From contig OX328126.1 in assembly GCA_946811695.1 (NCBI GenBank), positions 2,382,771-2,446,770 of the forward strand: a stretch of 64,000 nucleotides of DNA. Direction: 5' to 3'. Below, one piece after another: positions 10,209 to 25,571 of the stretch. This DNA comes from Gonocerus acuteangulatus. Lineage: Eukaryota; Arthropoda; Insecta; Hemiptera; Coreidae. The notes below the pieces were generated by a model. The model was not told where the DNA came from, did not search any database, and saw nothing but the letters and a program-made list of their open reading frames with translations. The first letter of the stretch is position 1. The number at the start of each line of letters is the position of its first letter. The position numbers and the translations under genes were made by a program.

Positions 10209-10907
10209 AATACATTTTATTTTAAATCAAAGGAAATAAAATTTAGAACAACTTTGTCAATTCACATTTTTGTTTTTACTTCGCCTTGTTTATTAAATTG
10301 CGTTGAAAGATGTTTATAACCATCCAACGTCTATAACCTTCAAATGTTTATAACCTTCCACTGCTTATAACCTACTAGTTACCTTTCTTATAAATAATTT
10401 TAAAATATGAATACCAATTCTTCTATTACCTCCAAAATTCAACCTAAACAAAGGTTTCTATTTATTAGGTGGTATTTCTTAAATTAATCACTCATTTTCA
10501 CTTCACTATGAGGTCATTACTGACGAGCTGTGACTGAATCGGATCGGATCGGGTCGGGACCAATGTAGGCAGTCACGTCGGCCGCTGTCGATCAAACGAA
10601 ATCGGATCGGGAGAAACACGGGGGTGTAGTTGCAGCCTAAGACACCGCTTACAATATCCTATTCTTTAGGAATGGTATAAAGGAGAAAATGCTGCTTCGA
10701 CTTATCGAAACCTTTCCTCGGTCTCCAAACCTCATTAAGGTGGCAATAACATGAATTCAGCCGATGACTTCACACCTACTTCTCACAAGAAGCGAGATAT
10801 TCATGGATGCATATTCTTGTGGAAATTACCATATATCCCCTGATGACTGCACAGGACTAGCTACATACCTTCGGAGTGTTGTAAAAGGATGGACTTACAA
10901 AGCCAAG
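10209..10907. other. flank of the Maverick; element remnants, no gene
   Basis: 10209-10290 continues the inverted-repeat element (TTTAGAACAACTTTG, CGCCTTGTTTATTAAATT). 10537-10600 holds CGGATCGG-rich sequence inversely related to the 6797-7425 array. The rest is unique. It ends with the target duplication GCCAAG at 10902-10907. Confidence 0.6.
10902..10907. repeat. 6-bp target-site duplication (left) of the Maverick
   Basis: GCCAAG precedes the left terminus and recurs exactly at 25566-25571 after the right terminus. Six base pairs is the known duplication length of Maverick/Polinton integration. Confidence 0.95.
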
Positions 10908-11096
10908 AGTAGAGAGAATTAGAGCGTTGAAGGACCACATGACGTCACAGTGACGTTATCAGTGACGTCATCAGCCAGTGACGTTATCAGTGACGTCATC
11001 AGCCAGTGACGTCATCAGCGGCGTCATCAGTGACGTCATCAGCTGACGTCATCAGCCGGAGTAATGTCAGCCAGCCGACGTTGCGCGACGTCATCA
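10908..11096 (+). repeat. left terminal inverted repeat with a TGACGTCA cluster
   Basis: The outer 40 bp match the complement of the right end exactly. Further in, both ends consist of short direct repeats of the type GTGACGTCATCAGCCA with different copy order. I count six exact TGACGTCA palindromes here plus degenerate copies (TGACGTTA). The similarity continues through GCGCGACGTCATCAGCT. TGACGTCA is the consensus CRE bound by CREB/ATF factors. Confidence 0.93.
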
Positions 11097-11190
11097 GCTA
11101 CAAGGAAAACAGTATCAGCCAGCCGCCATTTTCCTCACGAAGCCAATATGGATACCGCCTAATCACATCCGTATCAGTTTTAGACTAGCA

Positions 11191-11481
11191 ATGGACGCGC
11201 TAAGACGACTCGAAGAAAACCGTCTCTATAGACAGTTTATAGCGGAATACCCTCAAGTTACGTTAAGTAATCCAAAATGTAGGATGTATATAGCTATCAA
11301 AGAAAAGTTGGATGATCTACATCATTGTATAAAAATCGCAAACACGGACTCTAAAATGAACGATCATTATGAGACCTGCCCCTTCGCTACGGGATGTGAC
11401 GGGCCTGACACCTGTGTCTGCTGCTTCATTGGTAGCTATGAATATATAATAAAGATGAAATTAGGCGAATTATACCTCTAA
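11191..11481 (+). CDS. small Cys-rich protein of unknown function, 96 aa
   Basis: First open frame after the left terminal repeat. I do not recognise a family. The N-terminal half is charged and probably helical (RRLEENRLYRQFIAEYP). The C-terminal half has a compact cysteine group, CPFATGCDGPDTCVCC at about residues 65-80, which could bind metal or form disulfides; no signal peptide is seen. It lies 85 bp upstream of the BIR-RING gene on the same strand, so it may belong to the same transcript as an accessory (host-interaction) gene. The ATG at 11191 is the first in frame. Reality is supported by position and the Cys pattern only. Confidence 0.6.
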   Translation: MDALRRLEENRLYRQFIAEYPQVTLSNPKCRMYIAIKEKLDDLHHCIKIANTDSKMNDHYETCPFATGCDGPDTCVCCFIGSYEYIIKMKLGELYL

Positions 11482-11566
11482 GAGCAGTTTCCCGCCAATA
11501 GTCTTAGCATGAGTCATACTAGGCCCTCCTTAGATCCTTAGAAGCTCTAGAGACGCGCATTCAGTC

Positions 11567-12049
11567 ATGGCAGCGCAATCAGAGGATGAGCACAGCGGTT
11601 ATAGCGCTAGTGGTGGGAGCCACCCTTTCTCAAGACGGGTCAGCTTTCCAGAGTACCAACTAATTGAAGCGCGCAGAAGATCGTTCGATACTTGGCCTTT
11701 AAGTAACAAAATAAACCCCGAAGCGTTGATAGAAGCAGGATTTTTTTACACAGGTAAGGCTGACCAGACTATCTGTTACTGCTGTGGAGGGGGGTTAAAA
11801 GAGTGGGAGGAGAATGATGATGTATGGATGCAACACACTATATGGTTCCCCACCTGCCCGCTAGTTATTAAGAAGAAAAATGTATCAGGAGACGGTCATT
11901 TATGTAAGATATGCTTCGCAGATGTAGTTGAGATAGCATTCCTTCCATGTGCGCACGTAGCAACTTGTTCGGATTGCGCAAAAATATTAAAGAAATGCCC
12001 AATATGCCGAGTCACTAGAACCGGATATATGAGAGTATACCTATCGTAA
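11567..12049 (+). CDS. iap: inhibitor-of-apoptosis-like protein, BIR + RING, 160 aa
   Basis: A short IAP-type protein. The BIR domain spans about residues 24-100: the zinc ligands C70, C73, H90 and C97 are present with the conserved W and acidic residues between them, and the GFFYTGK segment matches the BIR core. A C3HC4 RING follows at about 113-147 (CKICFADVV...CAHVATC...CPICR). Known BIR-RING proteins bind caspases or IAP antagonists, and the RING gives E3 ubiquitin ligase activity; baculoviral IAPs have the same domains but usually two BIRs. In this element it presumably blocks death of the infected cell. It was likely captured from a host or viral iap gene. The start at 11567 is the first ATG and gives a natural N-terminus. 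Confidence 0.93.
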   Translation: MAAQSEDEHSGYSASGGSHPFSRRVSFPEYQLIEARRRSFDTWPLSNKINPEALIEAGFFYTGKADQTICYCCGGGLKEWEENDDVWMQHTIWFPTCPLVIKKKNVSGDGHLCKICFADVVEIAFLPCAHVATCSDCAKILKKCPICRVTRTGYMRVYLS

Positions 12050-12093
12050 GGATATGTATAAGGATGAGTTAAGCGTTATCACCATCAGTCGCA

Positions 12094-12531
12094 ATGGAGT
12101 CGTGCAAGTGTTGGGATGAAATTTCAAGATCTGGCTCTCTGAGTACGACCTTCCTCATAGAATTTCAACATAAGCTGAACTGGAATCTAGTTTCGCTATT
12201 TCACCGCTTCACAGTTGAAGAGTTAGGCATGTTTGCAAATCTAATCAATTGGGGGCATATATCACGTTATCAACCACTTACAGATGAGATGTTGGATCAT
12301 TACAAGACGCTATTAGACTGGACTTTGGTTTGCAAGTATCAGAAAATGTATCTTTATCAGATCATCAAGCATAGAGACAGAGTCGATTGGGAAATGTTAT
12401 TCGAAAGAGGTGATAAAGGGGCTGATTTCAAGGTGGTTTTCTATGACGACTACGTGGAATGGTACAAAAAGACCTATGGAACAGAGGAGAACCTGAGAAG
12501 TTTAGAATTCTACTTACTCAACGAGGATTAG
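12094..12531 (+). CDS. Trp-repeat protein, 145 aa
   Basis: Function unknown. It contains about four to five degenerate repeats of 22-25 residues marked by W-x2-I/L/V followed by S or K, aromatic, Q and a later hydrophobic helix (WDEIS, WNLVSLF, WGHISRYQPLT, WTLVCKYQK, WEMLF). The same pattern, much clearer, occurs in the protein at 12957-13418, so the two are probably diverged duplicates. Such short Trp-centred repeats are seen in proteins of large DNA viruses; that is a recollection of pattern, not a database hit. It ends 5 bp before the next ATG at 12537, so co-transcription is likely. Confidence 0.7.
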   Translation: MESCKCWDEISRSGSLSTTFLIEFQHKLNWNLVSLFHRFTVEELGMFANLINWGHISRYQPLTDEMLDHYKTLLDWTLVCKYQKMYLYQIIKHRDRVDWEMLFERGDKGADFKVVFYDDYVEWYKKTYGTEENLRSLEFYLLNED

Positions 12532-12536
12532 TCGTG

Positions 12537-12875
12537 ATGGAACCTTTGACGAGTGCGCGTCGTATCTTCAAAGATCTAGTTAATACTGAGAATGACATCA
12601 TACTTGTTATGAACTTTCTTGCTGAGAGAGACCTCGAATGCGTCATAGAAGGGAGAGATCTAGAGGAGCGTAAGAATATACTCGCTCATTTATTATCTTA
12701 TGACCTTATTCAAGAAGCTAATTATCTACTAACCCAACATCGTATGAATAGAAAAATAGATACATTTATTAACAAACTGCACGAGCTGAGGGCTGAAATA
12801 GATGTATACGATAAGAAGAGAGGTATTGACAACCTCATAAAGAGGATGTCTAAGCTAACAATTCTGGAGCGGTGA
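12537..12875 (+). CDS. helical protein of unknown function, 112 aa
   Basis: No family recognised. A longer frame begins at 12459, but it overlaps the preceding gene by 73 bp; the ATG at 12537, just after that gene's stop, is preferred and gives MEPLTSARRIFKDLV. The sequence is rich in Leu, Glu, Arg and Lys and should be almost wholly alpha-helical, with a basic C-terminus. Two weakly similar blocks (ERDLECVIEGRDLEERKN and the following LLSYDLIQEANYLL) suggest an ankyrin- or TPR-like helical repeat, but this is only an impression. Sits between the two Trp-repeat genes. Confidence 0.6.
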   Translation: MEPLTSARRIFKDLVNTENDIILVMNFLAERDLECVIEGRDLEERKNILAHLLSYDLIQEANYLLTQHRMNRKIDTFINKLHELRAEIDVYDKKRGIDNLIKRMSKLTILER

Positions 12876-12956
12876 TGTATATATCCGGGGGTGGGGGAAA
12901 TGCTATCCTATACTCCATAAGGTATATCGATAGGCAGTTTGAAAGCAGTCGCCGAG

Positions 12957-13418
12957 ATGGAAGGTATGTTTCAAGTATACCTCATAGCTAAGAAAGCTCT
13001 CCTTGCTGATTTGAAATGGAACTACAACAACCTATCAGATGATATGATCACCGAATTTGCTGACGACCTCGACTGGGACGACTTATCTAGGGATGGAAGC
13101 CTCAGCGAAGCTATTATGGAGAGATATAGCGAGCGTATATGTTGGCCGACTATATCTAGGAATCAAAATCTTAGCGAGGCATTTATTAGGAAGCACGCTG
13201 ATAAAGTCGACTGGAAGAATATTTCAATCTATCAAAAGCTGTCGGAAGAGTTCATAAACGAATTTGAAGCAGAGCTGGACTGGGGTTACATCATCAAGCA
13301 TCAGGACCTCTCCATCCGGTTCATCATAGATAATAAGCACCGCTGGGACTGGGAGGTGGCGCTCTCCTATCAACACCACGCTCCTGAGGATTATATAAAA
13401 TACGTTCTAAATATGTAA
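12957..13418 (+). CDS. Trp-repeat protein, 153 aa
   Basis: At least five repeats of about 22 residues follow each other: DWDDLSRDGSLSEAIM, CWPTISRNQNLSEAFI, DWKNISIYQKLSEEFI, DWGYIIKHQDLSIRFI and DWEVALSYQHHAPEDYI. The consensus is W-x2-I-S-x2-Q-x-L-S-E-x-F-I-x6-DW. These should form a short solenoid for protein binding. The open frame extends upstream only through a TTG at 12939, so the ATG at 12957 is taken as start. It is the last gene before the poly(A) signal at 13450. Probably a paralogue of the 12094 gene and, from its accessory position next to the iap gene, a candidate host-interaction factor. Confidence 0.75.
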   Translation: MEGMFQVYLIAKKALLADLKWNYNNLSDDMITEFADDLDWDDLSRDGSLSEAIMERYSERICWPTISRNQNLSEAFIRKHADKVDWKNISIYQKLSEEFINEFEAELDWGYIIKHQDLSIRFIIDNKHRWDWEVALSYQHHAPEDYIKYVLNM

Positions 13419-13449
13419 CCATGTATATTCAATATGTAACCTTTCACTT

Positions 13450-13455
13450 AATAAA
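13450..13455 (+). terminator. poly(A) signal AATAAA, end of transcription unit 1
   Basis: AATAAA lies 31 bp after the stop of the Trp-repeat gene, with a U/GU-rich stretch (TATGTTTTTTGTTC) about 23 bp further that fits a downstream cleavage element. The next TATA box begins only 50 bp later. Confidence 0.7.
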
Positions 13456-13504
13456 CAGTTATATATAAAAAACCCTATGTTTTTTGTTCATCTCACCCCC
13501 ATCC

Positions 13505-13513
13505 TATATAAAT
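13505..13513 (+). promoter_or_regulatory. TATA-box promoter of the virion gene unit
   Basis: TATATAAAT stands 36 bp upstream of the ATG of the PLA2-protease gene, leaving a very short leader. It is preceded by a pyrimidine-rich block (TCATCTCACCCCCATCC) that resembles the one before the TATA box at 17428 (TATCCTACCTCATCCC), so the promoters look related. Confidence 0.65.
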
Positions 13514-13549
13514 GCAAGGTGAGTAAGAATGGTATGAGTATGAAGAGAT

Positions 13550-14668
13550 ATGCGGAGGAGAACACATCGAGGAAGAGGCTTTTTGAATTCACTAATTGAT
13601 AAGCTACCATTCGAAGCACATTTACCAGGTTATAGATACTGCGGGCCAGGAACTAAGCTCAAGGAAAGACTAGCAAGAGGTGATAAAGGGATTAACCCTT
13701 TAGACGAAGCCTGTAAAAGACACGATATAGCTTATTCTACAAATAAAGACCGAACGGAAGCTGATAAAAGGTTAGCTGACGAGGCTTGGGGGCGCGTCAA
13801 GGCGCCAGATTCTTCGTTCGGTGAGAGGGCTGCTGCGTGGGCTGTTACAAACGCGATGAAGATCAAAACGAAAGTAGGAGGGGGGAGCTGCTGTTTTACA
13901 ACATCGCTAAGACGTATAAAAAAGCATATGAGGAAGGGGAACGGGATATCTAAAAATATAGATAAGGCTTTTACGATTGCTAAAAAAGTATTTCATAAGC
14001 AGACAAAGATTCCCCGCATCATCCCTATCCCTCAAAAAGGAGGAGTTATTCCTCTAATACCCATTTTTGCCGCATTAAGCGCTCTAGGCACAATTGCGTC
14101 AGGAGCTTCAAGCATTGCTAAAACAGTAAATGAAGCCCGAGACGCTCGATTGAGACTCGAGGAAGAAAAGCGGCATAATATGAATATGGAGAAGAAACAA
14201 ATCGGTAGCGGCTTATACTTAAAGCCTTACAAGAAAGGCTATGGGCTATACCTAAAACCGTGGGAGGGGAAGGGGTTAAAAAAAAAAAAAAATTTCCCGC
14301 CATTTGTAAAAAGACTGCCTATCCGAGCATTAACGGATATTGAAATCGATAGAGTCGCTAAGCGGTATATTAAACATTTTAGAGGAGTGTACGCGAGAAA
14401 TGCGCTTCCTCCTAAACCTTTAAATAAGGAAAATATCATTATTAACTTGGACGAGAACGAGGGGACTCACTGGGTAGCCTTATCTAAATACGATAACGAC
14501 ATTGTTTATTATGACAGTTTCGGAGATCTACCCCCACCACTAGAGGTTATAAAATATGTAAACGGCTTAAATATAAGCTATAATCGTCAGCGCGATCAGT
14601 CTTGGCGGAGCGCTATCTGCGGACATCTTTGCCTCACATTCCTTTACAACATATCAAAAAATGCGTAA
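13550..14668 (+). CDS. PLA2 / pX-like / adenain-like cysteine protease fusion, 372 aa
   Basis: Four modules are visible. (1) A parvovirus-type phospholipase A2 domain at about residues 24-85, with the calcium-loop YRYCGPGT and catalytic CKRHDIAY (H58, D59); in known virions this type of domain opens endosomal membranes. (2) A hydrophobic stretch at about 164-190, as in membrane-active minor capsid proteins. (3) A Gly/Lys-rich segment with the repeated GLYLKPY/GLYLKPW motif, like pX-type core proteins of adenovirus relatives. (4) A C-terminal maturation protease of the adenain family with H307 (THW), D322 (YYDSFG) and C357 (ICGHLC). In most Mavericks the protease is a separate gene. A run of 15 A at 14278-14292 lies between modules 3 and 4. 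The stop overlaps the penton start by 8 bp. Confidence 0.9.
   Translation: MRRRTHRGRGFLNSLIDKLPFEAHLPGYRYCGPGTKLKERLARGDKGINPLDEACKRHDIAYSTNKDRTEADKRLADEAWGRVKAPDSSFGERAAAWAVTNAMKIKTKVGGGSCCFTTSLRRIKKHMRKGNGISKNIDKAFTIAKKVFHKQTKIPRIIPIPQKGGVIPLIPIFAALSALGTIASGASSIAKTVNEARDARLRLEEEKRHNMNMEKKQIGSGLYLKPYKKGYGLYLKPWEGKGLKKKKNFPPFVKRLPIRALTDIEIDRVAKRYIKHFRGVYARNALPPKPLNKENIIINLDENEGTHWVALSKYDNDIVYYDSFGDLPPPLEVIKYVNGLNISYNRQRDQSWRSAICGHLCLTFLYNISKNA
14278..14292 (+). other. A15 homopolymer inside the PLA2-protease gene
   Basis: Fifteen consecutive A residues encode Lys4 between the pX-like and protease modules. Such a run is a classical slippage site for polymerase or ribosome, and equally a place for sequencing error. 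As given, the frame is open through it. Confidence 0.8.
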
Positions 14669-15389
14669 TCTAACAATTGTTATGAGCGATGATAAGTCGG
14701 AAATTACCAATACATTTTTTCCTCCCATCACTCTCGACAGCTCGCGCGAATATCATATAGGGCTATTATCGTTGGATTCGTTCAACTCGATACCTAACAT
14801 TATTAGAGGTAAGAATGACACGATCGGTATATGTGATGTCATATGTCATAGGGTTACGATTCCGCAAGGCGCGTATGAAGTTTCCGACATAGCTGACATG
14901 CTGCGGGCTCTCATGGAGAATCTTTATACCGACAAAAAGTTGAGAACAGGTCCTGAACCATCGCTACGTTTATACGCGAGTAGTACGACTAAGCGTGTAA
15001 AGTTAAGTTGTAATTACGCGCTAGATTTCTCAGTCCCTAACAATTTTGCCGAACTGTTGGGGGTGGAAGAAAGAGTCATCCCTGCTAATGAACCATATGA
15101 AGGACTCGAGCCTGTAAATATTACAGACGCTCTGACTATTTCGTTAGAGTGCTCCATAGCTAATGGAGCCTATAAAAACGGAGTACCTACTCATGATATT
15201 CATCAGTTTACACCTGGAGTCGCACCTGGCTACGCTATTAACGTACATCCGAAAAACATTATCTACTACCCTCTTAATACAAACGTCATCGATACCGTAA
15301 GAGTACGTCTCATAGATATCGACGGAGATTTAGTCAACTTTAACGGCGAGACTATAACTATCCGATTACATATAAAAGAATGGGAATAG
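14661..15389 (+). CDS. minor capsid (penton-like) protein, 242 aa
   Basis: The length and N-terminal block (FFPPITLDSSREYHIGLLS followed by SFNSIPNI) match the single-jelly-roll minor capsid proteins conserved in Mavericks, which form the pentameric vertices of the capsid. The remainder is beta-rich with a conserved-looking tail (IRLHIKEWE). The gene lies between the maturation protease and the major capsid gene, the standard virion order, and its ATG overlaps the protease gene's 3' end by 8 bp. No signal peptide or membrane segment. The assignment is from family pattern and synteny. Confidence 0.85.
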   Translation: MRNLTIVMSDDKSEITNTFFPPITLDSSREYHIGLLSLDSFNSIPNIIRGKNDTIGICDVICHRVTIPQGAYEVSDIADMLRALMENLYTDKKLRTGPEPSLRLYASSTTKRVKLSCNYALDFSVPNNFAELLGVEERVIPANEPYEGLEPVNITDALTISLECSIANGAYKNGVPTHDIHQFTPGVAPGYAINVHPKNIIYYPLNTNVIDTVRVRLIDIDGDLVNFNGETITIRLHIKEWE

Positions 15390-15508
15390 TATTTTCCAAA
15401 CATTCGTACGAAGATAGGAGAAGCGAGAGGTTCTACTTATCTCCTAGAAACATAGAGTTCCTCAAACAGCTTGGATTTAAGATCAAATATGCTAGATATC
15501 ACAGATGA
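15380..15508 (+). CDS. 42-aa basic protein overlapping penton and capsid genes
   Basis: A short frame starting at ATG 15380, inside the last codons of the penton gene, and ending at TGA 15508, inside the start of the capsid gene. It spans exactly the gap between them and overlaps by 10 and 20 bp. The product is basic and contains SPRNIEFLKQLGFKIK, resembling the FLxxLGxxV motif of small peptides encoded near capsid genes in other Mavericks, as far as I recall. It could be a small virion or core component. Without comparative data this is a candidate, but the gap is otherwise unexplained in a very compact gene block. Confidence 0.55.
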   Translation: MGIVFSKHSYEDRRSERFYLSPRNIEFLKQLGFKIKYARYHR

Positions 15509-16685
15509 TGTTAGATTCGATACTCGAATAGTACGCTCCGAGTACCACTCCCATCAGCCTTATTCGACGCTAACGTTTGCGCCTAGCGACGAGATTAGAA
15601 TCGCTATCAGACAGCAGGATATCTGCACACTACCATCGGAGAGTTATATCTATCTAGAAGGCTCTCTCACTAAGGAGGACGGTACTAAAACGACTGATGT
15701 CACTTTAATTAACAACGCGTTCGCGTTTCTCTTTGACGAAATCAGATATGAAATTGGAGGTGTAGAGGTCGATCGGGTTCGAAATTGTGGGATAACCTCC
15801 ACACTTAAGGGCTATTGCTCATTCAGCCCAACGACCGTTAAAAATTTAGAGCATGCGGGGTGGGGGTCTACCAATTATACGATTAATGACAGTGGAAACT
15901 TTACGGTTATACTCCCACTAAAAATACTTTTAGGATTTGCTGAGGATTATGATAAGATTATAGTACAAATGCAGCAGGAATTGATTCTAATCAGATCTAG
16001 AACCGATGTAAACGCCTTAACAGCAGAAGCCGATGATACAAAGTGTAAACTGAATCTTCAGAAAGTTTCCTGGAGCGTTCCATATATAACTTTATCGGAC
16101 GAGGAAAAACTGCGCGTGTATAAAGTCTTAAAAAATGACGAAGATATCGTCGTTCCGTTTAGGAGTTGGGAATTGTTCGAATTCCCCTCGTTACCGTCGA
16201 GTACAAAGCATAATTGGACGGTAAAAACGAGCGCTGGGCTCGAGAAGCCTAGATACGTTATTGTGGCTTTTCAGACGGATAGAAATAACAAGTTGAGTAA
16301 AGATATGTCCAAATTCGATCATTGCAGCGTGAGGGATGTGCGAGTGTGGTTGAATTCCGAATATTACCCCTACGAAGCATGGAATGTCGATCACACTAAA
16401 AATAATCAAGTCGTGGTTTATGAGAATTATTTAAGATTTAAACAATCTTACTATAATGAGCAAGGTCAGTCGTACTTCGGCTTCCATGAGTTCGTATCGA
16501 CTTCACCTATAATCGTTATCGATTGTAGTAAACAGAACGATTCAGTTAAATCGGGGAATATCGATATAAGAATTGAAATACAAGCTTCTGTAAATTTCCC
16601 GCCAAACACGAGCGTCTACGCGTTGATTATAAACGATAGAATCATCGAGTATAACCCGTCAAAGAATATCGTGCGTAAAACATGA
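15489..16685 (+). CDS. major capsid protein (double jelly roll), 398 aa
   Basis: The N-terminal region (FDTRIVRSEYHSHQPY, then a DEIRIAIRQQD block and TLPSESYIYLEG) is the signature of Maverick/adintovirus hexon-like capsid proteins, which form trimers with two jelly-roll folds. The C-terminal FPPNTSVYALIINDRIIEY block is also typical. The frame reaches upstream to a TTG codon at 15471; the first ATG is at 15489 and is used. The last four bases overlap the ATPase start (ATGA). Its presence with protease, penton and ATPase means the element encodes a complete capsid module. Confidence 0.9.
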   Translation: MLDITDDVRFDTRIVRSEYHSHQPYSTLTFAPSDEIRIAIRQQDICTLPSESYIYLEGSLTKEDGTKTTDVTLINNAFAFLFDEIRYEIGGVEVDRVRNCGITSTLKGYCSFSPTTVKNLEHAGWGSTNYTINDSGNFTVILPLKILLGFAEDYDKIIVQMQQELILIRSRTDVNALTAEADDTKCKLNLQKVSWSVPYITLSDEEKLRVYKVLKNDEDIVVPFRSWELFEFPSLPSSTKHNWTVKTSAGLEKPRYVIVAFQTDRNNKLSKDMSKFDHCSVRDVRVWLNSEYYPYEAWNVDHTKNNQVVVYENYLRFKQSYYNEQGQSYFGFHEFVSTSPIIVIDCSKQNDSVKSGNIDIRIEIQASVNFPPNTSVYALIINDRIIEYNPSKNIVRKT

Positions 16686-17359
16686 AAATAGCTCAACAGA
16701 CAGAGTCGATAACACGAGTAGAGCTCCCCAGAGAAGTTGAACCTGTCAAGAGACATTCCAGCCTGTTTCCTCACTCTCTTCGATGCATCATAGCCGGACC
16801 TTCAGGAGCTGGGAAGACGGATTTGGTCTTAACACTTCTTCTACACGAGAATGGACTACGTTTTGAGAACGTCTACATTTGCGCCAAGACGCTACATCAG
16901 TTAAAATATAAGCTATTAGGAGAAGTGTTTAGCAAAGTGCCAGAAATTGGCTATTATTTGTACGATGACGTCAGCGAGGTTCAATTATCAGAAATAAAAC
17001 CTAATTCAGTCTTCATATTCGATGACGTCATTACTTCTAAGCAGAATGTAATCAGAGACTTATTCTCCTTTGGAAGGCATAAATGCATAGATGTAATCTA
17101 TCTTGTTCAAACATTTACTAAGGTGCCTAAGCATCTTATTAGAGATAATGCCAATGTGTTTGTATTATTTAAGCAGGATATGCGAAACCTGCGAAATTTT
17201 TATAATGATAATATAACTAATGTTAGCTTTAAGGAGTTTGTCAATATGTGTAAACACTGCTGGTCGTCAGAGCAGCATGGATTTATAACTATTAACGCTG
17301 AATGTAACATTAATAAAGGATATTATAGACAATCTTTTGATAAGTTTATTCTATGTTAA
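16682..17359 (+). CDS. FtsK/HerA-type genome-packaging ATPase, 225 aa
   Basis: P-loop ATPase of the A32/FtsK-HerA group that pumps DNA into virions. Walker A is GPSGAGKT at residues 39-46; Walker B is VFIFDDV near residues 109-115, followed by a QTFTKVPKHLIRDNAN segment with the sensor-like Gln and an arginine-finger candidate, typical of Maverick ATPases. The length is normal for the family. The start overlaps the capsid stop by 4 bp, which suggests coupled translation. The gene ends 14 bp before the poly(A) signal at 17373, closing the virion unit. Confidence 0.93.
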   Translation: MKIAQQTESITRVELPREVEPVKRHSSLFPHSLRCIIAGPSGAGKTDLVLTLLLHENGLRFENVYICAKTLHQLKYKLLGEVFSKVPEIGYYLYDDVSEVQLSEIKPNSVFIFDDVITSKQNVIRDLFSFGRHKCIDVIYLVQTFTKVPKHLIRDNANVFVLFKQDMRNLRNFYNDNITNVSFKEFVNMCKHCWSSEQHGFITINAECNINKGYYRQSFDKFILC

Positions 17360-17378: not shown

Positions 17379-17427
17379 AGTTTATGCAATGTAATAACCT
17401 GTGTTTTTTGTTATCCTACCTCATCCC

Positions 17428-17439
17428 TATATATATAAG
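17428..17439 (+). promoter_or_regulatory. TATA-box promoter of the third unit
   Basis: TATATATATAAG lies 34 bp upstream of the ATG at 17474. An open frame extends 5' to 17384, but that start would be upstream of the TATA box, so it is not used. The pyrimidine block TATCCTACCTCATCCC precedes it, as at 13490. Confidence 0.65.
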
Positions 17440-17473
17440 TTATATAGCTATGTATACATCAGTCGACATTACG

Positions 17474-18289
17474 ATGGACACGAAGAAGGAGCTGGTAAAG
17501 CTTACGAAAGCTATCAAGGAGAAATATAACACTATTAAAAAGTCTGATTTTACTGATAATGTTCTATTAGAGAAGACATTTGCACCTATTACAACATCTA
17601 TAGGGAGCTTAAAACCTTTAGTAAACCCTGAGCCTGAAACCGCCGTAAACCCTGAGCCTGAAACCGATGTAAACCCCGAACCCGATGTAAACCCTGAGCC
17701 AGAAATCGCGGTAAAACTAGAAAAAACGGAGGCGTCCTCCGATAGTGATACTTCCTATGATACTTCCTATGATGGGGCGAAAGCTGATGACCTAGAGTAC
17801 TACCTCCAGAGAATTGATAGGGATAGAGTTTACGGCATTCGAGAGGGTAAAGATGGAGTATTACATCTTGGGAAAGCTAGGGTGATAATCGATCCGAATG
17901 AGATACGCGTGAAAGATGGTAGATATAAACGTACACGAGGTCTTTTACAGCTATTATTCTTTAAGGCCCCTAAGGATTACAAGAGATCGGATCTTAAGGC
18001 TTACAAGGACATTCTTAAACGTACGGGAGTACACTTAGACGTACACGGAAAACTTAAACGGTTTCATAACAGTAGAAAATATAAGGGCGTTATTCAGAAC
18101 CTTTTTCAGTTAGGAAGGGGTTTAAACATGAATACTAGTCAGCCCCGAGTCGAATATTACGCGTCGGCCGATGAGTTAGTCGATAGATTAAGAAAGCTAG
18201 TAGCGTCACAACTCGCCGGAAACACCGGGGTAACGAACGAACAGGTAAGTATAATTAGCGAGTTGCGAGAATTAGGAATCATTTACTAA
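17474..18289 (+). CDS. DUF8207-like Maverick protein with acidic Pro-Glu repeats, 271 aa
   Basis: The N-terminal part is charged and helical (MDTKKELVKLTKAIKEKYN). Then comes a low-complexity stretch with five NPEPE-type repeats and an Asp/Ser-rich segment (SSDSDTSYDTSYD). The C-terminal half has the pattern of a domain I associate with DUF8207, found in many arthropod Maverick proteins: YGIREGKDG, RYKRTRGLLQLLF, YKDILKRTGVH and RKYKGVIQNLF. The function of that domain is unknown to me. First gene after the TATA box at 17428; 20 bp precede the next ATG. The ATG at 17474 is chosen by promoter position; 17450 is an alternative. Confidence 0.75.
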   Translation: MDTKKELVKLTKAIKEKYNTIKKSDFTDNVLLEKTFAPITTSIGSLKPLVNPEPETAVNPEPETDVNPEPDVNPEPEIAVKLEKTEASSDSDTSYDTSYDGAKADDLEYYLQRIDRDRVYGIREGKDGVLHLGKARVIIDPNEIRVKDGRYKRTRGLLQLLFFKAPKDYKRSDLKAYKDILKRTGVHLDVHGKLKRFHNSRKYKGVIQNLFQLGRGLNMNTSQPRVEYYASADELVDRLRKLVASQLAGNTGVTNEQVSIISELRELGIIY

Positions 18290-18309: not shown

Positions 18310-18702
18310 ATGGCTTACAACCCTAGGACTGGCGAGTATCACTACGATCGGAGGATATCTAGATATTTTATATCTAATAACCTTCTGGACATTGGAAATA
18401 GGCGGATCACCGGTGTTGCCCCTCCTATATTCTACTACGACGCGGCTACGAAAGGTTACGTCGACGGTAATTGTATTACGAATAAATCCAATATATATAG
18501 CGCTCACGGTAAGAGAATTACTAATTTATCAGATCCTTCGGATGATACAGACGCGGTCAGCTTAGGCTACTTAAAGGCATACTTAGCCTGCGTTTTGAAA
18601 ACGTTAAATGGACAACCCTGTGAAGGAAAGATTGATCGAGGAGATACACCGGCCGGTACGAGTACACTTCCGGCGTCGCCATTACAACCTCAAGGGCATT
18701 AA
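18310..18702 (+). CDS. fibre-like protein, 130 aa
   Basis: Two copies of a motif known from phage tail fibres and other trimeric fibres are visible: RRITGVAPP...DAATKGYVDG and KRITNLSDPSDDTDAVSLGYLKAY (consensus ITNLxxPxxxxDAVxxxYV). This suggests a trimeric spike or attachment protein. It is short for a fibre and lacks a recognisable knob; the C-terminal 40 residues are Pro/Thr/Gly-rich. The last 95 bp overlap the start of the integrase gene in another frame. It sits 20 bp after the DUF8207-like gene and is likely on the same transcript. Confidence 0.65.
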   Translation: MAYNPRTGEYHYDRRISRYFISNNLLDIGNRRITGVAPPIFYYDAATKGYVDGNCITNKSNIYSAHGKRITNLSDPSDDTDAVSLGYLKAYLACVLKTLNGQPCEGKIDRGDTPAGTSTLPASPLQPQGH

Positions 18703-19537
18703 CGATCTTTGGGAAGCTGACCTGATGGATTTTAAAGAATATAAAAAGCAAAACAAGGGGTATCAATACATTTTAATAGTTATCGACGCATTTAGTAAAT
18801 ACGTATACATGGAGGCGTTGAAAGATAAGAGCGGAGACGAAGTAACTAAAGCTATGAGGAAAATCCTAACTCGAGGGGCACCTACATTGTTACAAACTGA
18901 TAGAGGGAGAGAATTTTATAACAAACCCTTTGAGAAGCTCATGAAGGAGAAGGGTGTGAGGCACTATAGTACGTATTCTTCAATAAAATGCGCGCATGTT
19001 GAAAGATTGATAAGAACTATCAAGGCTAAGATGTATCGAAGGTTTCATCTTCAGGGATCGTTTCGATATTTACACATACTACAAGATATTGCTCATGAGT
19101 ATAATACCGACAAGCATAGGACTATAGGAATGGCTCCGGCCCAAGTTAATAAAGATAATGAGAATTATATACTTTCAAAATATAGAAGCCTAGCACCTTT
19201 CGACAGCCTCAAACGACATTCACGACCTCTTAAGAAGGATGATTATGTACGAATATCGCGCGAGAGAGGTGTTTTCGACAAAGCCTACCACCCCAACTAT
19301 TCAACGGAAGTGTTTAAGATTGAAGAAGTAAAAACTACGAAGCCTCCTACCTATATCTTGAAGGACCTGAACGGTAGTCCCATCAAAGGCGCGTTTTATT
19401 CCGGGGAATTGCAGAAAACTACGTTCAACGACGTATATCTGGTAGAGAAAATACTGAGAAGAAAAAATAATCGCGTTTTAGTGAAATGGTTAGGTTTTCG
19501 AAAGCCTACATGGGAGCCTGCTAAAAATATTATATAA
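18608..19537 (+). CDS. int: retroviral-type integrase with C-terminal chromodomain, 309 aa
   Basis: Catalyses insertion of the element with a 6-bp duplication. The RNase-H-fold core has the DDE triad D38 (LWEADLMDF), D98 (LQTDRGREF) and E132 (HVERLIRTIK). An SH3-like region follows at about 215-270 (KKDDYVRI, FKIEEV...PPTYILKDLNG) and a chromodomain at 277-309 (VEKILRR...LVKWLGF...TWEP), which probably guides integration to modified chromatin. The N-terminal zinc-binding HHCC domain of retroviral integrases is absent. The ATG at 18608 lies inside the fibre-like gene; the next Met is too close to the first catalytic Asp to be the start. Confidence 0.95.
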   Translation: MDNPVKERLIEEIHRPVRVHFRRRHYNLKGINDLWEADLMDFKEYKKQNKGYQYILIVIDAFSKYVYMEALKDKSGDEVTKAMRKILTRGAPTLLQTDRGREFYNKPFEKLMKEKGVRHYSTYSSIKCAHVERLIRTIKAKMYRRFHLQGSFRYLHILQDIAHEYNTDKHRTIGMAPAQVNKDNENYILSKYRSLAPFDSLKRHSRPLKKDDYVRISRERGVFDKAYHPNYSTEVFKIEEVKTTKPPTYILKDLNGSPIKGAFYSGELQKTTFNDVYLVEKILRRKNNRVLVKWLGFRKPTWEPAKNII

Positions 19538-19631
19538 TAATAATCTCCGAGATTGAGTCATAGCTTAGTCATATCATTTTTTAACCTTTATCACCGGATT
19601 CGGGGAGTGACTTTTCCTGCTGATTATAACT

Positions 19632-19961: not shown

Positions 19962-19973
19962 TTGAACTTTATG

Positions 19974-19979
19974 AATAAA
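19974..19979 (+). terminator. poly(A) signal AATAAA, end of third unit
   Basis: AATAAA lies 12 bp after the exon 2 stop of the small membrane-protein candidate; a U-rich GTTATGTTATTTATC stretch is downstream. Confidence 0.65.
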
Positions 19980-20019
19980 TGGATGTATGCTGAACTGGTT
20001 ATGTTATTTATCAATCCCT

Positions 20020-20125
20020 ACCTCTCTATCCCTACCCCTCCCCTCCAGCCCCTCTCTATCCCTACCCCTCCCCTCCAGCCCCTCTCTACCCCTACCCCTC
20101 CCCTCCAGCCTGATTAGTATATAAG
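20020..20125 (+). promoter_or_regulatory. polymerase gene promoter: pyrimidine repeats and TATA box
   Basis: About three tandem copies of a 32-bp pyrimidine-rich unit (CCCTACCCCTCCCCTCCAGC) precede TATATAAG at 20118-20125. The ATG of the polymerase gene is 68 bp downstream; its leader contains three near-identical CCATCAGT(A/C)AGAGGTA segments. The CCCTACC-type motif also stands before the other TATA boxes. Confidence 0.6.
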
Positions 20126-20192
20126 AGCATGCGCCATGCGCCATCAGTAAGAGGTATCCACCATCAGTCAGAGGTACTCACCATCAGTCACT

Positions 20193-23100
20193 ATGAACTG
20201 CTCCAAGTGTTCCAAGGCGTTTTCTAGGACTGATAGTAGGATTCGCCATGAGCAAATATGCCGCGCTTGCATTCTTTGCGGCCAGTTGGGGATTCATGAC
20301 TGCCCAGGGAGATCCTGCGCACACTGCAGCTTCCGCTTCAGTAACCTACACAACTTGGAGCGTCATGAGAGCTGTTGTGGTCAGCCGCCTGCGAAACGAC
20401 AGCGAGGAGAGCCTAGCAACGAAGAGCTACTAGGTGAGCTGCCAGACTCTAGCGGAGTAGTAGAATATGAGACTGCGTTCAAAAGTAGGTTAAGATCATA
20501 TTTTATTAGGTCCGAGACTAACTCGGATATTCCTAGGTTTTGTACATCTATAAGGTATATTATTAAGGATAAGATAAGTAATAGTATATTAGACCATTGT
20601 AGTATTAAGTTTAATTTAGTTTTAGATTGTATGATGACTAATGTAAGTGGGGATGAGTTATCGGTAACAGTAAAAACTAAAAATAACCCCGTTTTCGCTG
20701 ATACAGATATAGATGAACTTCTTACTACGATGTGTGAAAAATTGGATAAGGAGCTTGAGGAGTCTCAATTAAAACGTAGCGGTTGGGCCTTAGCTGCAAT
20801 CGATGGGATGCGATTAAAAATTAATAAATATACCCCGTTGAGAGGTAGTAGTTATATCGAACTACCCGCTAAGATAAAAGATAGGCGGGCTTGCATTAAT
20901 GTTCAAAACAATGACTCTAGATGCTTCGTCTATTCAGTCTTAGCCAAATTTGCATCGGGAACCCCTCATAGAGTTTCTGTTTATTCTACTCTTGAGAGCC
21001 GATATGATTTCTCCCACATGACTTTCCCCACACCTGTAAAGGATATAAAACAGTTCGAAAAACTCAATAATATTTCGATCAATGTGTTCGGACTGGATAA
21101 AGATCTCGATGTTTATCCCATAAAAGTCGTTGAATCTGAGCTTCCGGATCACCGAGATCTCTTACTACTAGAGCAAGATGAGCTTTCTCACTATGTATAC
21201 ATTAAGGATTTCGATAGATTAGTGGGATCACAAGTTTCGAAACGTCACGCTAAAAAGCTTATTTGCAAACGCTGTTTCACCCATTTCGATAACCAATTAA
21301 AGCCGGCTTCTGTCAAAATGGCAGACCATAAAGTTTACTGCATAAAAAACCCTCCTACCCGAGTTGAGCTACCTACTAATAAGGCGTTTGTAGAATTCGA
21401 GCACGTAGAGAGATCGTTAAGAGTTCCCTACGTCATATATTGCGACTTCGAGAGCATCCTCAGACCTGTGCATACGTGTCAGCCCGATCCGAGTGCGTCA
21501 TATACGCTCAACTACCAGCTCCATGAGCCTATGAGTTTTTGCTGCTACCTGAAAATGTCCGACGAAGTCGACCATCTAGAGACACCTCTACCTAAGGAGC
21601 CGTACTTATACAGAGGAAAGGATGCTGGTAAGCATCTAATGGAATACCTGATAAAGATCGCAGAGATGGTATCAGATCTCTATAGGACGTACGCTCCAAT
21701 GAAACCCCTGACCAGCGAGGAAGCGCAACGACACGAGGCAAGCACGCATTGCTACATGTGTGATAAGCCGTTTACTTCGACGGTTATTAAGGTTAAAGAT
21801 CATAATCATCTCACAGGCTTATTTAGAGGTAGCGCACACCAGTCTTGCAATCTACGATATTCAACCCCTTCGTTTTTACCGGTATTGTTTCATAACCTCT
21901 CGTCATACGATGCTCATCATATAGTGAGACAGTTGGGGTGTAATACTAAGAAGATATCGGTGATCCCCAACACCGAAGAGAAGTACATCTCGTTTAGCAA
22001 ATCAGTGACGAAGACCCTAGAGCTCCGCTTTTTGGATACTTTTAGATTCATGTCAAGCAGTCTAGACAGCTTAGCTAAAAATTTACCGGAGCTACGTGAG
22101 ATTTCAAAATTTTACCCGCCAGAACATGTTCAACTATTATCGCGTAAGGGGGTATTCCCATACGATTACGTCACTGGTTGGAGCACGTTAGAGGAGCAAG
22201 CATTGCCGGACAAAACGTATTTTTATAATAAGTTAACGGATACATCCGTTTCTGATGAAGACTACCAGCACGCTATAAATGTGTGGAATACATTTAAATG
22301 TCGCACCATAGGAGAGTATAGCGACCATTATCTCAGAACGGATGTATTACTGCTATCGGATGTCTTCGAAGTATTTCGAGATATCACCCTGAAGACGCAT
22401 AAGCTCGACCCCTGTAACTACTTCACCCTCCCCGGACTTTCTTGGGATGCCATGCTTCGCTTTACAGGTGTGAGACTTCAACTGCTCACCGATTATGATA
22501 TGATATTAATGATTGAGCGAGGAATACGAGGAGGAATATGCCAGGTATCGCACAGGTTCATCGAAGCTAATAATAAATACTTGAATAACTATAATCCTAA
22601 TGAGCCATCGTCGTATATCGTTTATCAAGATGCAAATAATTTATATGGCCATGCAATGGTGCAATCGCTACCCTATGGGGGGTTTGAATGGGTGGAGGGG
22701 GATATAGATCTAAGCAAACTCTCACCTGACTACGGATATATCCTAGATGTTGATGTCGACTACCCTCAAGAGCTACACGATTTGCACAACTCCCTACCAT
22801 TTCTACCTGACAATATAGAGGTGAGTGAGCATAGGAAACTAGTCCCTCATTTAAATCCTAGGAGGAATTATATCGTCCATTACGTAGCTCTCAAGCAAGC
22901 TTTAGACCATGGCCTCATTTTAAAGAAAATTAATAGAGCGATAAAATTTCGTCAGTCTAAATGGCTCGAACCCTACATTTCCCATAATACTCAACTTCGA
23001 ACAACTGCTCGCACGGCTTTTGAAAAAGATCTGTACAAATTGTATAACAACTCGGTTTTTGGTAAAACTATGGAAAATGTTAGAAATCGAATGAATATGC

Positions 23101-23843
23101 AGCTCGTGTGTGACGCTAAAAAGATCGAAAAAATGGTTTCAAAAAATAATTTTATTGATAGAACTATATACACCGAGAACCTAGCTGCTATACATTTGTT
23201 AAAGAATAAAGTAAAATTTAATAAGCCCCTTTACATCGGTCTAAGTGTTTTAGATCTTTCAAAGACTACCATGTACGCTTACCACTACGACGTTATGATG
23301 CCTCGATTCGGACCTGAAAGGTTAATCCTATCTTATACAGATACGGATTCATTCATATATAAGATATTTACTGAAGATATATTCCAGGATTATATAGATC
23401 TCCTGCCGTATTTGGATACATCCGACTTCCCTCCCGATCATAAATGTTTCTCGACTCTGAACAAAAAGGTATTAGGTAAATTCAAAGATGAGACTAATGG
23501 GGAGCTAGTAAATGCGTTTGTAGGACTTCGGGCAAAAATGTATGCAATACTTATCGATAAGCGTGAAATTCGTAAAGCTAAAGGTGTTAAGAAAGCCGTA
23601 TTGAAAAATAAAATCACCTTTCAAGATTATGTCTCTTGCCTAAAAACCCATGATACAGCTCGTCATCCCATGAAGTTTATCCGATCATCCAAACATTTCA
23701 TTTATAGTACAGAAGTTAATAAAATATCTCTATCAGCGAACGATGACAAAAGGTATATTCTTAAAGATAACGTCTCCACTCTAGCATTAGGTCATTATAA
23801 GATACCTTCGGACAACTTACTTGCGCTCCCTAATACTTCATAA
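20193..23843 (+). CDS. polB: protein-primed family B DNA polymerase, 1216 aa
   Basis: Replicative polymerase of the Maverick class. The N-terminus has Cys/His zinc motifs (CSKCSKAFSR, HCSFRFSNLHNLERHE). Residues about 230-350 form a block with NNDSRCFVYSVLA and ISINVFG, usual in these proteins. The exonuclease motifs are IYCDFESIL (near 415), HNLSSYDAHHI (near 570) and YLRTDVLLLSDVF (near 715). Between Exo I and II lies a CYMCDKPF...DHNHLTG...CNLRY endonuclease-VII-like Cys/His module. The polymerase motifs are A YQDANNLYG (near 811), B NNSVFGKTMENV (near 952) and C YTDTDSF (near 1048). All catalytic Asp residues are present and there are no stops, so it may be functional. It is alone in the fourth transcription unit. 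Confidence 0.96.
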   Translation: MNCSKCSKAFSRTDSRIRHEQICRACILCGQLGIHDCPGRSCAHCSFRFSNLHNLERHESCCGQPPAKRQRGEPSNEELLGELPDSSGVVEYETAFKSRLRSYFIRSETNSDIPRFCTSIRYIIKDKISNSILDHCSIKFNLVLDCMMTNVSGDELSVTVKTKNNPVFADTDIDELLTTMCEKLDKELEESQLKRSGWALAAIDGMRLKINKYTPLRGSSYIELPAKIKDRRACINVQNNDSRCFVYSVLAKFASGTPHRVSVYSTLESRYDFSHMTFPTPVKDIKQFEKLNNISINVFGLDKDLDVYPIKVVESELPDHRDLLLLEQDELSHYVYIKDFDRLVGSQVSKRHAKKLICKRCFTHFDNQLKPASVKMADHKVYCIKNPPTRVELPTNKAFVEFEHVERSLRVPYVIYCDFESILRPVHTCQPDPSASYTLNYQLHEPMSFCCYLKMSDEVDHLETPLPKEPYLYRGKDAGKHLMEYLIKIAEMVSDLYRTYAPMKPLTSEEAQRHEASTHCYMCDKPFTSTVIKVKDHNHLTGLFRGSAHQSCNLRYSTPSFLPVLFHNLSSYDAHHIVRQLGCNTKKISVIPNTEEKYISFSKSVTKTLELRFLDTFRFMSSSLDSLAKNLPELREISKFYPPEHVQLLSRKGVFPYDYVTGWSTLEEQALPDKTYFYNKLTDTSVSDEDYQHAINVWNTFKCRTIGEYSDHYLRTDVLLLSDVFEVFRDITLKTHKLDPCNYFTLPGLSWDAMLRFTGVRLQLLTDYDMILMIERGIRGGICQVSHRFIEANNKYLNNYNPNEPSSYIVYQDANNLYGHAMVQSLPYGGFEWVEGDIDLSKLSPDYGYILDVDVDYPQELHDLHNSLPFLPDNIEVSEHRKLVPHLNPRRNYIVHYVALKQALDHGLILKKINRAIKFRQSKWLEPYISHNTQLRTTARTAFEKDLYKLYNNSVFGKTMENVRNRMNMQLVCDAKKIEKMVSKNNFIDRTIYTENLAAIHLLKNKVKFNKPLYIGLSVLDLSKTTMYAYHYDVMMPRFGPERLILSYTDTDSFIYKIFTEDIFQDYIDLLPYLDTSDFPPDHKCFSTLNKKVLGKFKDETNGELVNAFVGLRAKMYAILIDKREIRKAKGVKKAVLKNKITFQDYVSCLKTHDTARHPMKFIRSSKHFIYSTEVNKISLSANDDKRYILKDNVSTLALGHYKIPSDNLLALPNTS

Positions 23844-23844
23844 G

Positions 23845-24045
23845 TTAAGGTTGGTTGTAAATCTAAGTTAAGGTTGGTTGTAAATCTAGGTTAAGGTTGG
23901 TTGTAAATCTGAGTTAAGGATAGATAAGCTATTTTTGTAAATCTAAGTTAAGGATAGATAAGCTATTTTTTGTAAATCTAAGTTAAGGTTGGTTGTAAAC
24001 CTAAGTTAAGGGAAGTTGTAAATCTTTTTGTACATTTAAGTTAAC
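23845..24045. repeat. short direct repeats after the polymerase gene
   Basis: About seven copies of GTTAAGGTTGGTTGTAAATC and a variant (GTTAAGGATAGATAAGC) lie in the 3' untranslated region. Confidence 0.85.
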
Positions 24046-24063
24046 CTTTTTATGTTATAACAA

Positions 24064-24069
24064 AATAAA
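24064..24069 (+). terminator. poly(A) signal AATAAA of the polymerase unit
   Basis: AATAAA about 220 bp after the polymerase stop, after the direct repeats; it is followed by a T-rich stretch. Confidence 0.6.
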
Positions 24070-24349
24070 ACACGTTTTATCCTGAACATGCCTATTTATT
24101 TATCCTATTGACATTTTTATAACCCCTACATCGCCATAAGTGAGTGATCTGTTACAATAAAATAATTATTCCACTCACTTGTGCGTGTTGAAGGTTCTTG
24201 CAGCTGTAGGTTGCTGAGTCTACTGAGGAGTCTGTTGGATGGAGGGGCGAGGTAAAGATAAGGAGCAGTCCCCTCTATCACATATCGCCTACACGATTAA
24301 TGTGGGAGAGCGAAACTGTTATTTATTTTAAACACTATAATACTAAGAT

Positions 24350-24620
24350 TACAACCTCCTATTACCCTCAGAGCCCTCGTAACAGGTCACGAGGGCCTTG
24401 AGGGTAGTAGAGGCATCATACGGCACACTAGTGGTCAGTACTATGCTCCGGCCGTCCATTGCCTGCTTCAACTGCTAGAGTCATCCCAGGTACCCATTAT
24501 TAAATTAATTAAAGGCTGGGTTAGCCTAGGGACGGCCATGAACGAAGACACTAGTGCTTAGTGCTTGCTCGGGATTTGACCTCTAGCTTATTAGTCCAGT
24601 GCTCTACCACTCACCCTATT
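24350..24620 (-). repeat. tRNA-derived SINE inside the Maverick (second family)
   Basis: The minus strand shows a box A-like GTGAGTGGTAGAGCACTGG and a box B-like GAGGTCAAATCCCGAG about 33 bp later, then a body reaching GGGTACCTGGGATGA. It differs from the SINE family at 46058 and 57248. It implies retroposition into the element's non-coding right end, or capture by it. Confidence 0.5.
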
Positions 24621-24639
24621 ACCCTGCTTAACAAACTCT

Positions 24640-25384
24640 TACAAGCTGTGATATGTATCTAGACGCTCGTCACACTATATGTTATTGATTTTGAGGATAC
24701 GTCAGTACAGCTGGTTACTACTGACTAACACTGCTTTCGCTAAGGAAATTATGAAAAACATGCTGCGCGCTATTGATCGCAGCATCACTTCATAGAGGCG
24801 CTTACAGCTGCGCTCAGTACGTTGAAGGGCCTCCAGCTTCGTGAGGAAAATGGCGGAGCGCGTTTTTTCTAAAATCCCAAAAAACATCGTAAGAAACTCA
24901 ATGTTCTCTTCACGATGCTGAATAGATAACAAGTAGTTTGACCTCCAGCTTCGTGAAGAAAATGGTGGAGCGTGTTTTTTTCTAATTCCAAAAAAAAAAA
25001 AAAAACATCGTAAGAACCTCCCTCTTTAACGTGCTATTAACCTAGGCCAGCATCGCGTCAAAGCAATGACCAGCGTGACGTTAGCTTATTGGCGGCGTCA
25101 GCTGACTGGTAATGTTTCAAACTTGGAAGCGCGCTAACAGACGAAGCGCGCTATTAACCTAGGTCAGCACTGCGTCAAAGCAGTGGCGTCAACAGCGCGA
25201 CGTTAGCTGGTTGACAGTACTCAAGCTGATGACGGCAGCTGGCTGGTAATGTTTCAAACTTGGAAACGCGCTATTAACCTATGGCAGGTCTGTTTCAGTC
25301 CAGCTTCGTGAGGAAGATGGTGGCGTTTGTTTGCTGCGCTAACAGACGAAACGTGCTATTAGCCTAGGTCAGCACCGCGTCAAA
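24640..25384. repeat. non-coding right subterminal region with direct repeats
   Basis: No gene. A block CCAGCTTCGTGAGGAAAATG(G) occurs near 24835, 24950 and 25300, and a block CGCGCTATTAACCTAGGTCA-GCACTGCGTCAAAGCA occurs near 25029, 25147 and 25357. These long direct repeats lie just inside the right terminal repeat. The role is unknown; structural or replication-related is possible. Confidence 0.75.
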
Positions 25385-25565
25385 GCAATGACGTCTAAGG
25401 CGTGACGTCAGCTGATGACGTCGCGCGACGTCAGCTGGCTGACAGTACTCCGGCTGATGACGTCAGCTGATGACGTCACTGGCTGATGACGTCACTGATA
25501 ACGTCACTGTGACGTCATCAGCCAGTGACGTCATGTGGTCCTTCAACGCTCTAATTCTCTCTACT
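25385..25565 (-). repeat. right terminal inverted repeat with a TGACGTCA cluster
   Basis: Complement of the left terminus, with the same TGACGTCA-type repeats (six exact copies counted) arranged slightly differently. It ends CTAATTCTCTCTACT at 25565. Confidence 0.93.
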
Positions 25566-25571
25566 GCCAAG
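25566..25571. repeat. 6-bp target-site duplication (right) of the Maverick
   Basis: GCCAAG, identical to 10902-10907. Confidence 0.95.

What the first reader, a model, noticed from the sequence alone, without database searches (positions are those of the whole stretch)
10902..25571. Apparently intact Maverick/adintovirus-like provirus with perfect 6-bp target duplication
Both termini, the exact GCCAAG duplication and all core replication, integration and capsid genes are present without stops. Most genomic copies are decayed. Uninterrupted polymerase, integrase, protease, ATPase and capsid frames imply a very recent insertion that might still produce virions or transpose.
Basis: partly seen in the sequence, partly recalled or inferred. 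Interest (0 to 1): 0.85.

Follow-up and report, generated by a model that had tools for sequence, protein, structure and literature searches.

The report
Intact Maverick provirus, insect-virus type
This is a complete, apparently undamaged copy of a known kind of virus-like jumping element (a Maverick, also called Polinton or adintovirus) in what looks like an animal chromosome; the kind is known, but its ends carry an unusual array of sites that host signalling proteins might recognise.

Summary
A 14,658-bp element (10908-25565) is bounded by inverted repeats whose outer 41 bp are identical and by an exact GCCAAG duplication. Thirteen + strand ORFs have no internal stop. They encode a DJR major capsid, A32-type ATPase, rve integrase, an adenain-like protease fused to a parvovirus-type phospholipase A2, a 1,216-aa protein with PolB motifs, a probable penton, a BIR-RING IAP, two W-repeat proteins and a short phage-fibre-like protein. 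Catalytic residues are present in protease, PLA2 and integrase; capsid and integrase are full length against relatives; all 15 species-named capsid relatives among 120 listed are insects. It is a new member of a known kind: intact insect and vertebrate Mavericks are published. 'Very recent' holds only if the element evolved neutrally since insertion (then under about 0.3% divergence); the repeat arms differ at 4 of 154 aligned positions and cannot date it. Activity is untested. Newer details: six perfect CREB/ATF palindromes (TGACGTCA) at each end, against one in 49 kb of flank, and TCAGT initiator-like motifs just before 4 of 13 ORFs, PolB included. I propose, unproven, that host factors drive early transcription from these sites.

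The parts
10902..10907 (.). left copy of the 6-bp target-site duplication GCCAAG
10908..11099 (+). left terminal inverted repeat with six perfect TGACGTCA palindromes (10940-11051) and some degenerate copies
11191..11481 (+). 96-aa ORF, function unknown; TCAGT 17 bp before the ATG
11567..12049 (+). IAP: one BIR domain plus RING finger (160 aa)
   Evidence: Pfam BIR E 1.8e-21, zf-C3HC4_3 E 5e-13; BIR proteins of the PDB
12094..12531 (+). W-repeat protein 1 (145 aa)
   Evidence: phrog_3532 E 1.2e-19; 31% identical to W-repeat protein 2 over 95 aa
12459..12875 (+). 138-aa ORF overlapping W-repeat 1 by 73 nt, function unknown
12957..13418 (+). W-repeat protein 2 (153 aa from ATG), predicted alpha-solenoid of about 23-aa units
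   Evidence: phrog_3532 E 5.7e-36; best model pLDDT 80.5, the five models ranging down to 39.9; phage G repeats 42% identical
13550..14668 (+). PLA2-adenain fusion (372 aa): parvovirus-type phospholipase A2, hydrophobic linker, cysteine protease
14661..15389 (+). probable penton (minor capsid) protein, 242 aa
   Evidence: position immediately upstream of MCP; no family or PDB hit; inferred
15489..16685 (+). major capsid protein, double jelly roll, 398 aa
   Evidence: PF21738 E 3.7e-109; full-length alignment
16682..17359 (+). genome-packaging ATPase, A32 type, 225 aa
   Evidence: PF04665 E 4.1e-09; Walker A GPSGAGKT in the translation (motif name recalled)
17384..18289 (+). 301-aa ORF with Pro/Glu repeats, function unknown
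18310..18702 (+). short protein with two phage-tail-fibre-type repeats (130 aa)
   Evidence: PF03906 E 9.3e-07; phrog tail fibres; Synechococcus phage tail fibres E 5e-4
18608..19537 (+). rve integrase, 309 aa, DDE residues D38, D98, E132
   Evidence: PF00665 E 3.6e-13; full-length relatives
20136..20190 (+). tandem units of about 20 bp holding three TCAGT, downstream of TATATAAG (20118), before PolB
20193..23843 (+). family B DNA polymerase by motifs, probably protein-primed, 1,216 aa, with zinc fingers, an OTU-like stretch and an endonuclease VII domain
   Evidence: motifs in translation; Endonuclease_7 E 4e-4, just below cut-off
23844..25409 (.). non-coding right region with 23-, 43-, 55- and 79-bp repeats and three YY1-like motifs
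   Evidence: YY1 label recalled
25410..25565 (-). right terminal inverted repeat with five perfect TGACGTCA palindromes, a sixth at 25403-25410 on its inner edge
25566..25571 (.). right copy of the 6-bp target-site duplication GCCAAG

Best explanation
An intact, chromosomally integrated Maverick (Polinton/adintovirus-type) dsDNA virus, probably of an arthropod. Shown: exact 6-bp duplication, inverted ends, uninterrupted frames, catalytic residues kept in integrase, PLA2 and protease. Inferred cycle: the integrase inserted the linear DNA and left the 6-bp duplication; host RNA polymerase II transcribes early genes (ORF96, IAP, W-repeat 1, PolB) from TCAGT-type start sites, helped by CREB/ATF sites in the terminal repeats; PolB copies the linear genome from its ends by protein priming; capsid, penton and ATPase build and fill the particle; the fused polypeptide is cut by its own adenain-like protease and releases PLA2 to breach the endosome at entry; the IAP delays cell death. 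The confidence given is for identity and anatomy; I hold the early-promoter step at about 0.4 and the CREB/ATF step at about 0.2.
Confidence: 0.9

Rival explanations
1. A dead or silenced transposon copy that merely has not acquired stops yet; it only looks intact.
For: Most vertebrate Mavericks are defective (96%, PMC8097293). Arm mismatches exist. No activity data here.
Against: No disruption in 11,532 coding bases, full-length capsid and integrase, conserved catalytic residues. None of this shows expression.
Confidence: 0.3
2. A domesticated provirus kept intact by host selection, for example as an antiviral or particle-delivery system.
For: Intact frames together with arm divergence would fit an older insertion under selection. 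A partial Maverick sits in a Cotesia congregata bracovirus circle (PMC5803895).
Against: Integrase, polymerase, terminal repeats and duplication are all kept; a domesticated system typically loses replication or integration parts (my own knowledge). Orthologous insertions could not be looked for.
Confidence: 0.05
3. The TGACGTCA arrays are not regulatory but a simple expansion of a 12-bp palindromic repeat, or serve replication or end recognition.
For: Tandem Repeats Finder reads the left array as a 12-bp unit TGACGTCATCAG, nine copies at 76% matches; the arms differ by indels within the array; degenerate copies such as TGACGTTA stand among the perfect ones, so selection on the palindrome is not visible.
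Against: Six perfect palindromes remain at each end; adenovirus ends also carry ATF sites near a promoter (recalled, no call).
Confidence: 0.55

Closest known systems
Sf Maverick 1 of Spodoptera frugiperda cells (PMC5803895, passages)
   Same: ORFs for ATPase, integrase, PLA2 protein, adenain-like protease and PolB; eight small tandem ORFs and PolB on one strand; POLB with an endonuclease VII domain; called apparently intact.
   Different: There PLA2 (CAP) and protease are separate ORFs; here they are fused. The authors found no PY-type capsid; here a double jelly-roll capsid is plain. IAP and fibre-like genes were not mentioned in the passages I saw.
Intact vertebrate Mavericks (PMC8097293, abstract and passages)
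   Same: Intronless core ORFs, terminal inverted repeats, 6-bp target duplications, 12.7-24.6 kb.
   Different: There the genes form two modules, on one strand in Xenopus tropicalis; here all 13 ORFs share one strand. The species-named relatives found here are insect.
Drosophila-associated adintoviruses 1-3 (PMC8363768, passages)
   Same: 13.3-14.6 kb; the first has PolB, integrase, capsid, protease and FtsK proteins and twelve predicted proteins.
   Different: They were assembled from reads; here the element is seen with flanks and duplication.
Insect PLA2-protease fusion proteins (e.g. Lucilia cuprina, Trichogramma kaykai, Exocentrus adspersus)
   Same: 38 of the 120 listed relatives align over 89% or more of the fused protein.
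   Different: 41-49% identical; the listed names, where given, call them hypothetical, PLA2-like or VP1 proteins, not Maverick proteins.

Membership tests
[quoted passage not shown]
Maverick/Polinton | RVE-family integrase with intact DDE | tested here: met
   PF00665 E 3.6e-13, above cut-off; D38, D98, E132 invariant in 12
[quoted passage not shown]
   Exonuclease and polymerase motifs visible (motif names recalled), endonuclease VII hit; no polymerase family or PDB hit
Maverick/Polinton | FtsK/A32-type packaging ATPase | tested here: met
   PF04665 E 4.1e-09, above cut-off
Maverick/Polinton | adenovirus-like cysteine protease | tested here: met
Maverick/Polinton | double jelly-roll major capsid protein | tested here: met
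   PF21738 E 3.7e-109
Maverick/Polinton | single jelly-roll penton near the MCP gene | tested here: inconclusive
   242-aa ORF directly upstream of MCP; no family or PDB hit; not modelled
Adintoviridae (definition seen in PMC11071296, passages) | PolB with N-terminal OTU-like domain | tested here: inconclusive
   Cys and His stretches that resemble OTU seen in the translation (recalled), no Pfam hit
Adintoviridae (definition seen in PMC11071296, passages) | integrase with C-terminal chromodomain | tested here: inconclusive
   PF00385 E 0.02, below cut-off, residues 281-308; 14 of 120 listed relatives carry PF00385
Adintoviridae (definition seen in PMC11071296, passages) | hexon recognisable by BLASTp against adintovirus hexons | not tested
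   No protein named as adintovirus appears among the 120 listed rows of 1,253 matches
Adintoviridae | virions or extracellular genomes | not testable with these tools
   needs reads or particles
IAP family | BIR domain and RING finger | tested here: met

The most novel reading that the evidence does not exclude
The terminal repeats act as a signal-responsive switch: six perfect CREB/ATF sites at each end, with TCAGT initiators (twice with a TATA motif) before accessory and polymerase genes, wake the integrated virus when host cAMP or stress signalling rises, tying provirus reactivation to host physiology.
Probability: 0.2. Interest if true: 0.65.

Novelty: new member of a known kind. Interest (0 to 1): 0.4.

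Why it matters
A complete Maverick copy with flanks, duplication and uninterrupted genes lets one ask whether these elements are still viruses; in 2021 their particles had not been observed (PMC8097293, abstract). The terminal CREB/ATF arrays and initiator-like motifs give a concrete, cheap hypothesis for how such a provirus could be switched on. The PLA2-protease fusion, shared with many insect proteins, suggests that membrane-breaching and maturation functions are made together in these elements.

Tried and rejected
DNA of relatives: capsid alone, and capsid, integrase and PLA2-protease alignments, in IMG/VR gave 2, 61, 91 and 32 pattern matches, none confirmed by tblastn; the capsid alignment in GTDB genomes gave 92, none confirmed. 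Two to six peptide patterns were used per scan, so sensitivity was limited. The W-repeat protein gave no match in IMG/VR. So terminal repeats of relatives could not be compared.

Three CRE sites at most 25 bp apart occur in 22 stretches of IMG/VR; none of those 22 loci matches six element queries, PolB by its first half.

Truncated integrase: rejected. The ORF begins right after a stop and overlaps the fibre-like ORF, but the 120 listed relatives have similar lengths and the 12 aligned start within a few residues of each other. Non-ATG capsid start: rejected. Fusion by loss of a stop: unlikely, because 38 of 120 listed relatives are fused too.

Polymerase part against phages and plasmids: no match. 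W-repeat model against PDB: best E 2.6, no resemblance found. PLA2-protease model in PDB by Foldseek: one match at E 0.001 or below, a poxvirus I7L protease; adenain came up in the second look. tRNA and Rfam scans of the window: nothing. Host identity: of 10 flank ORFs scanned, the only hit above its Pfam cut-off was a mariner HTH; species unknown. A full second copy of the empty site was not found in the window; matches were to minisatellites and other repeats.

TCAGT enrichment was noticed first and tested afterwards (4 of 13 ORFs, background 5.7%, P 0.005), so it is a lead. Of eight distinct TATA..TCAGT pairs on the + strand of the element (one in the flanks), only those at 12057 and 20118, and less closely 14572, lie just before an ORF.
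Full report
What is there. The element spans 10908-25565 (14,658 bp). GCCAAG stands directly outside both ends. The outer 41 bp of the arms are perfectly complementary. Further in, the arms align over 10908-11099 and 25410-25565 with 150 identities, 4 mismatches and 40 gap columns; the gaps lie in the repeat array. Six element proteins (PolB by its first half only) and both end regions were compared with the rest of the window: no protein match, and only short, mostly A-rich DNA matches.

Coding content. Thirteen ORFs lie on the + strand without internal stops. Their union, taken with the TTG start of W-repeat 2, is 11,532 bp, 79% of the element. I left out a fourteenth listed ORF (19553-19801, 82 aa, TTG start). 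Random first-order Markov sequence gave at most one ATG ORF of 120 aa or more in each of 100 controls, against 12 here.

Capsid. The 398-aa protein matches the double jelly-roll domain at E 3.7e-109. Of 1,253 matching database proteins the best 120 are listed, 45-52% identical; 15 of these carry a species name and all 15 are insects. Aligned with 11 of them, its Met at 15489 lines up with their starts and the C-termini agree.

Integrase. 309 aa, PF00665 at E 3.6e-13; 344 relatives, 120 listed, lengths 303-369. D38, D98 and E132 are invariant in the 12 sequences aligned. A chromodomain is suggested at the C-terminus (E 0.02, below the curated cut-off); 14 of the 120 listed relatives have it precomputed.

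Polymerase. The 1,216-aa product shows the exonuclease and polymerase motifs of protein-primed PolB as I recall them, N-terminal zinc fingers and an OTU-like stretch, and an endonuclease VII domain (Pfam E 4e-4, slightly below cut-off; PHROGs E 7e-5). No polymerase family or solved structure matched. Published Spodoptera POLBs have about 3,500-bp ORFs with the same endonuclease VII domain (PMC5803895, passages).

Other genes. ATPase: PF04665 E 4.1e-09. IAP: one BIR (E 1.8e-21) and RING (E 5e-13); the solved BIR proteins it matches best are BIRC1, BIRC2 and 'apoptosis 1 inhibitor'. Two W-repeat proteins are 31% identical over 95 aa and belong to phrog_3532 (E 5.7e-36 and 1.2e-19); the second finds four phage records with 30-40 places each, from Bacillus phage G (two records), a Bacillus pumilus phage and a Listeria phage. 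The second is predicted as an alpha-solenoid; the best of five models has pLDDT 80.5, the worst 39.9, and no PDB match is below E 2.6. The 130-aa ORF before the integrase has two repeats like those of phage tail fibres. ORFs of 96, 138 and 301 aa have no assignment. The 242-aa ORF before the capsid is probably the penton, by position; [quoted passage not shown]

Is it recent? If no selection acted after insertion, an intact 11,532-bp coding set implies at most 0.13-0.26% divergence at P = 0.05, depending on the indel rate assumed. Four mismatches in 154 aligned arm positions would imply about 1.3% per arm if the arms had been identical at insertion; at the rates some 15-30 disrupting changes would then be expected, and none is seen. 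The simplest reading is that the arms already differed. Recent insertion is likely but not shown.

Regulatory signals. TGACGTCA occurs 15 times in the window; 100 shuffles gave a mean of 0.52 and at most 3. Six lie at each end of the element, two in the ATPase gene and one in the flanks. Some of this is expansion of a 12-bp unit, and degenerate copies stand among the perfect ones. Four YY1-like motifs lie in the element, of nine in the window (label recalled). TCAGT lies within 45 bp before ORF96, IAP, W-repeat 1 and PolB, 4 of 13 ORFs against a background of 5.7% (P 0.005, post hoc); a TATA motif precedes it before W-repeat 1 and PolB. The other nine ORFs, the virion genes and the integrase among them, have none within 45 bp. 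CAGT is the early initiator of a baculovirus, and most of its early genes have a TATA box (PMC1550435, passages). This suggests an arthropod host and an early/late division. It is inference.

Known or new? Intact Mavericks are known: 134 vertebrate copies with intact ORFs, TIRs and 6-bp duplications (PMC8097293, abstract and passages), and two apparently intact lineages in Spodoptera cells, where Mavericks are transcribed (PMC5803895, passages). Three adintovirus genomes of 13.3-14.6 kb come from Drosophila samples (PMC8363768, passages). The adintovirus definition used is that of PMC11071296 (passages). The founding adintovirus paper was not held. Searches touching IAP, tail fibre, PLA2 or CREB/promoter motifs in Polintons (capped listings, two of them, filled mainly with unrelated papers) listed no paper on these features; that is weak evidence of absence.

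Verdict. I file it as a Maverick/Polinton by the features tested as met (polymerase and penton remaining inconclusive, none tested and failed), and as adintovirus-like rather than as a proven member of Adintoviridae.

Noticed in passing
12094-13418: Two genes of a 23-aa W-repeat family (phrog_3532) that is repeated 30-40 times in jumbo phages such as Bacillus phage G; predicted alpha-solenoid without a solved relative found.
   Followed up: partly
18310-18702: Phage-tail-fibre-type repeats in an animal Maverick gene that overlaps the integrase by 95 nt; possible attachment protein.
   Followed up: partly
window 1-10400 and 26042-60000: Many minisatellite arrays (units from 22 to 148 bp), for example 29004-32342 and 38374-41453; the latter is open in three frames over about 1,040-1,056 codons.
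   Followed up: no
62960-63421: HTH_48 domain of a Mos1-type mariner transposase (E 4e-14).
   Followed up: no
16966-17030: Two TGACGTCA sites in the ATPase gene, where Asp-Asp-Val codons stand; probably coincidence.
   Followed up: partly
23832-24048: 23-bp repeat array directly after PolB, and 43/55/79-bp repeats up to the right end; role unknown.
   Followed up: no
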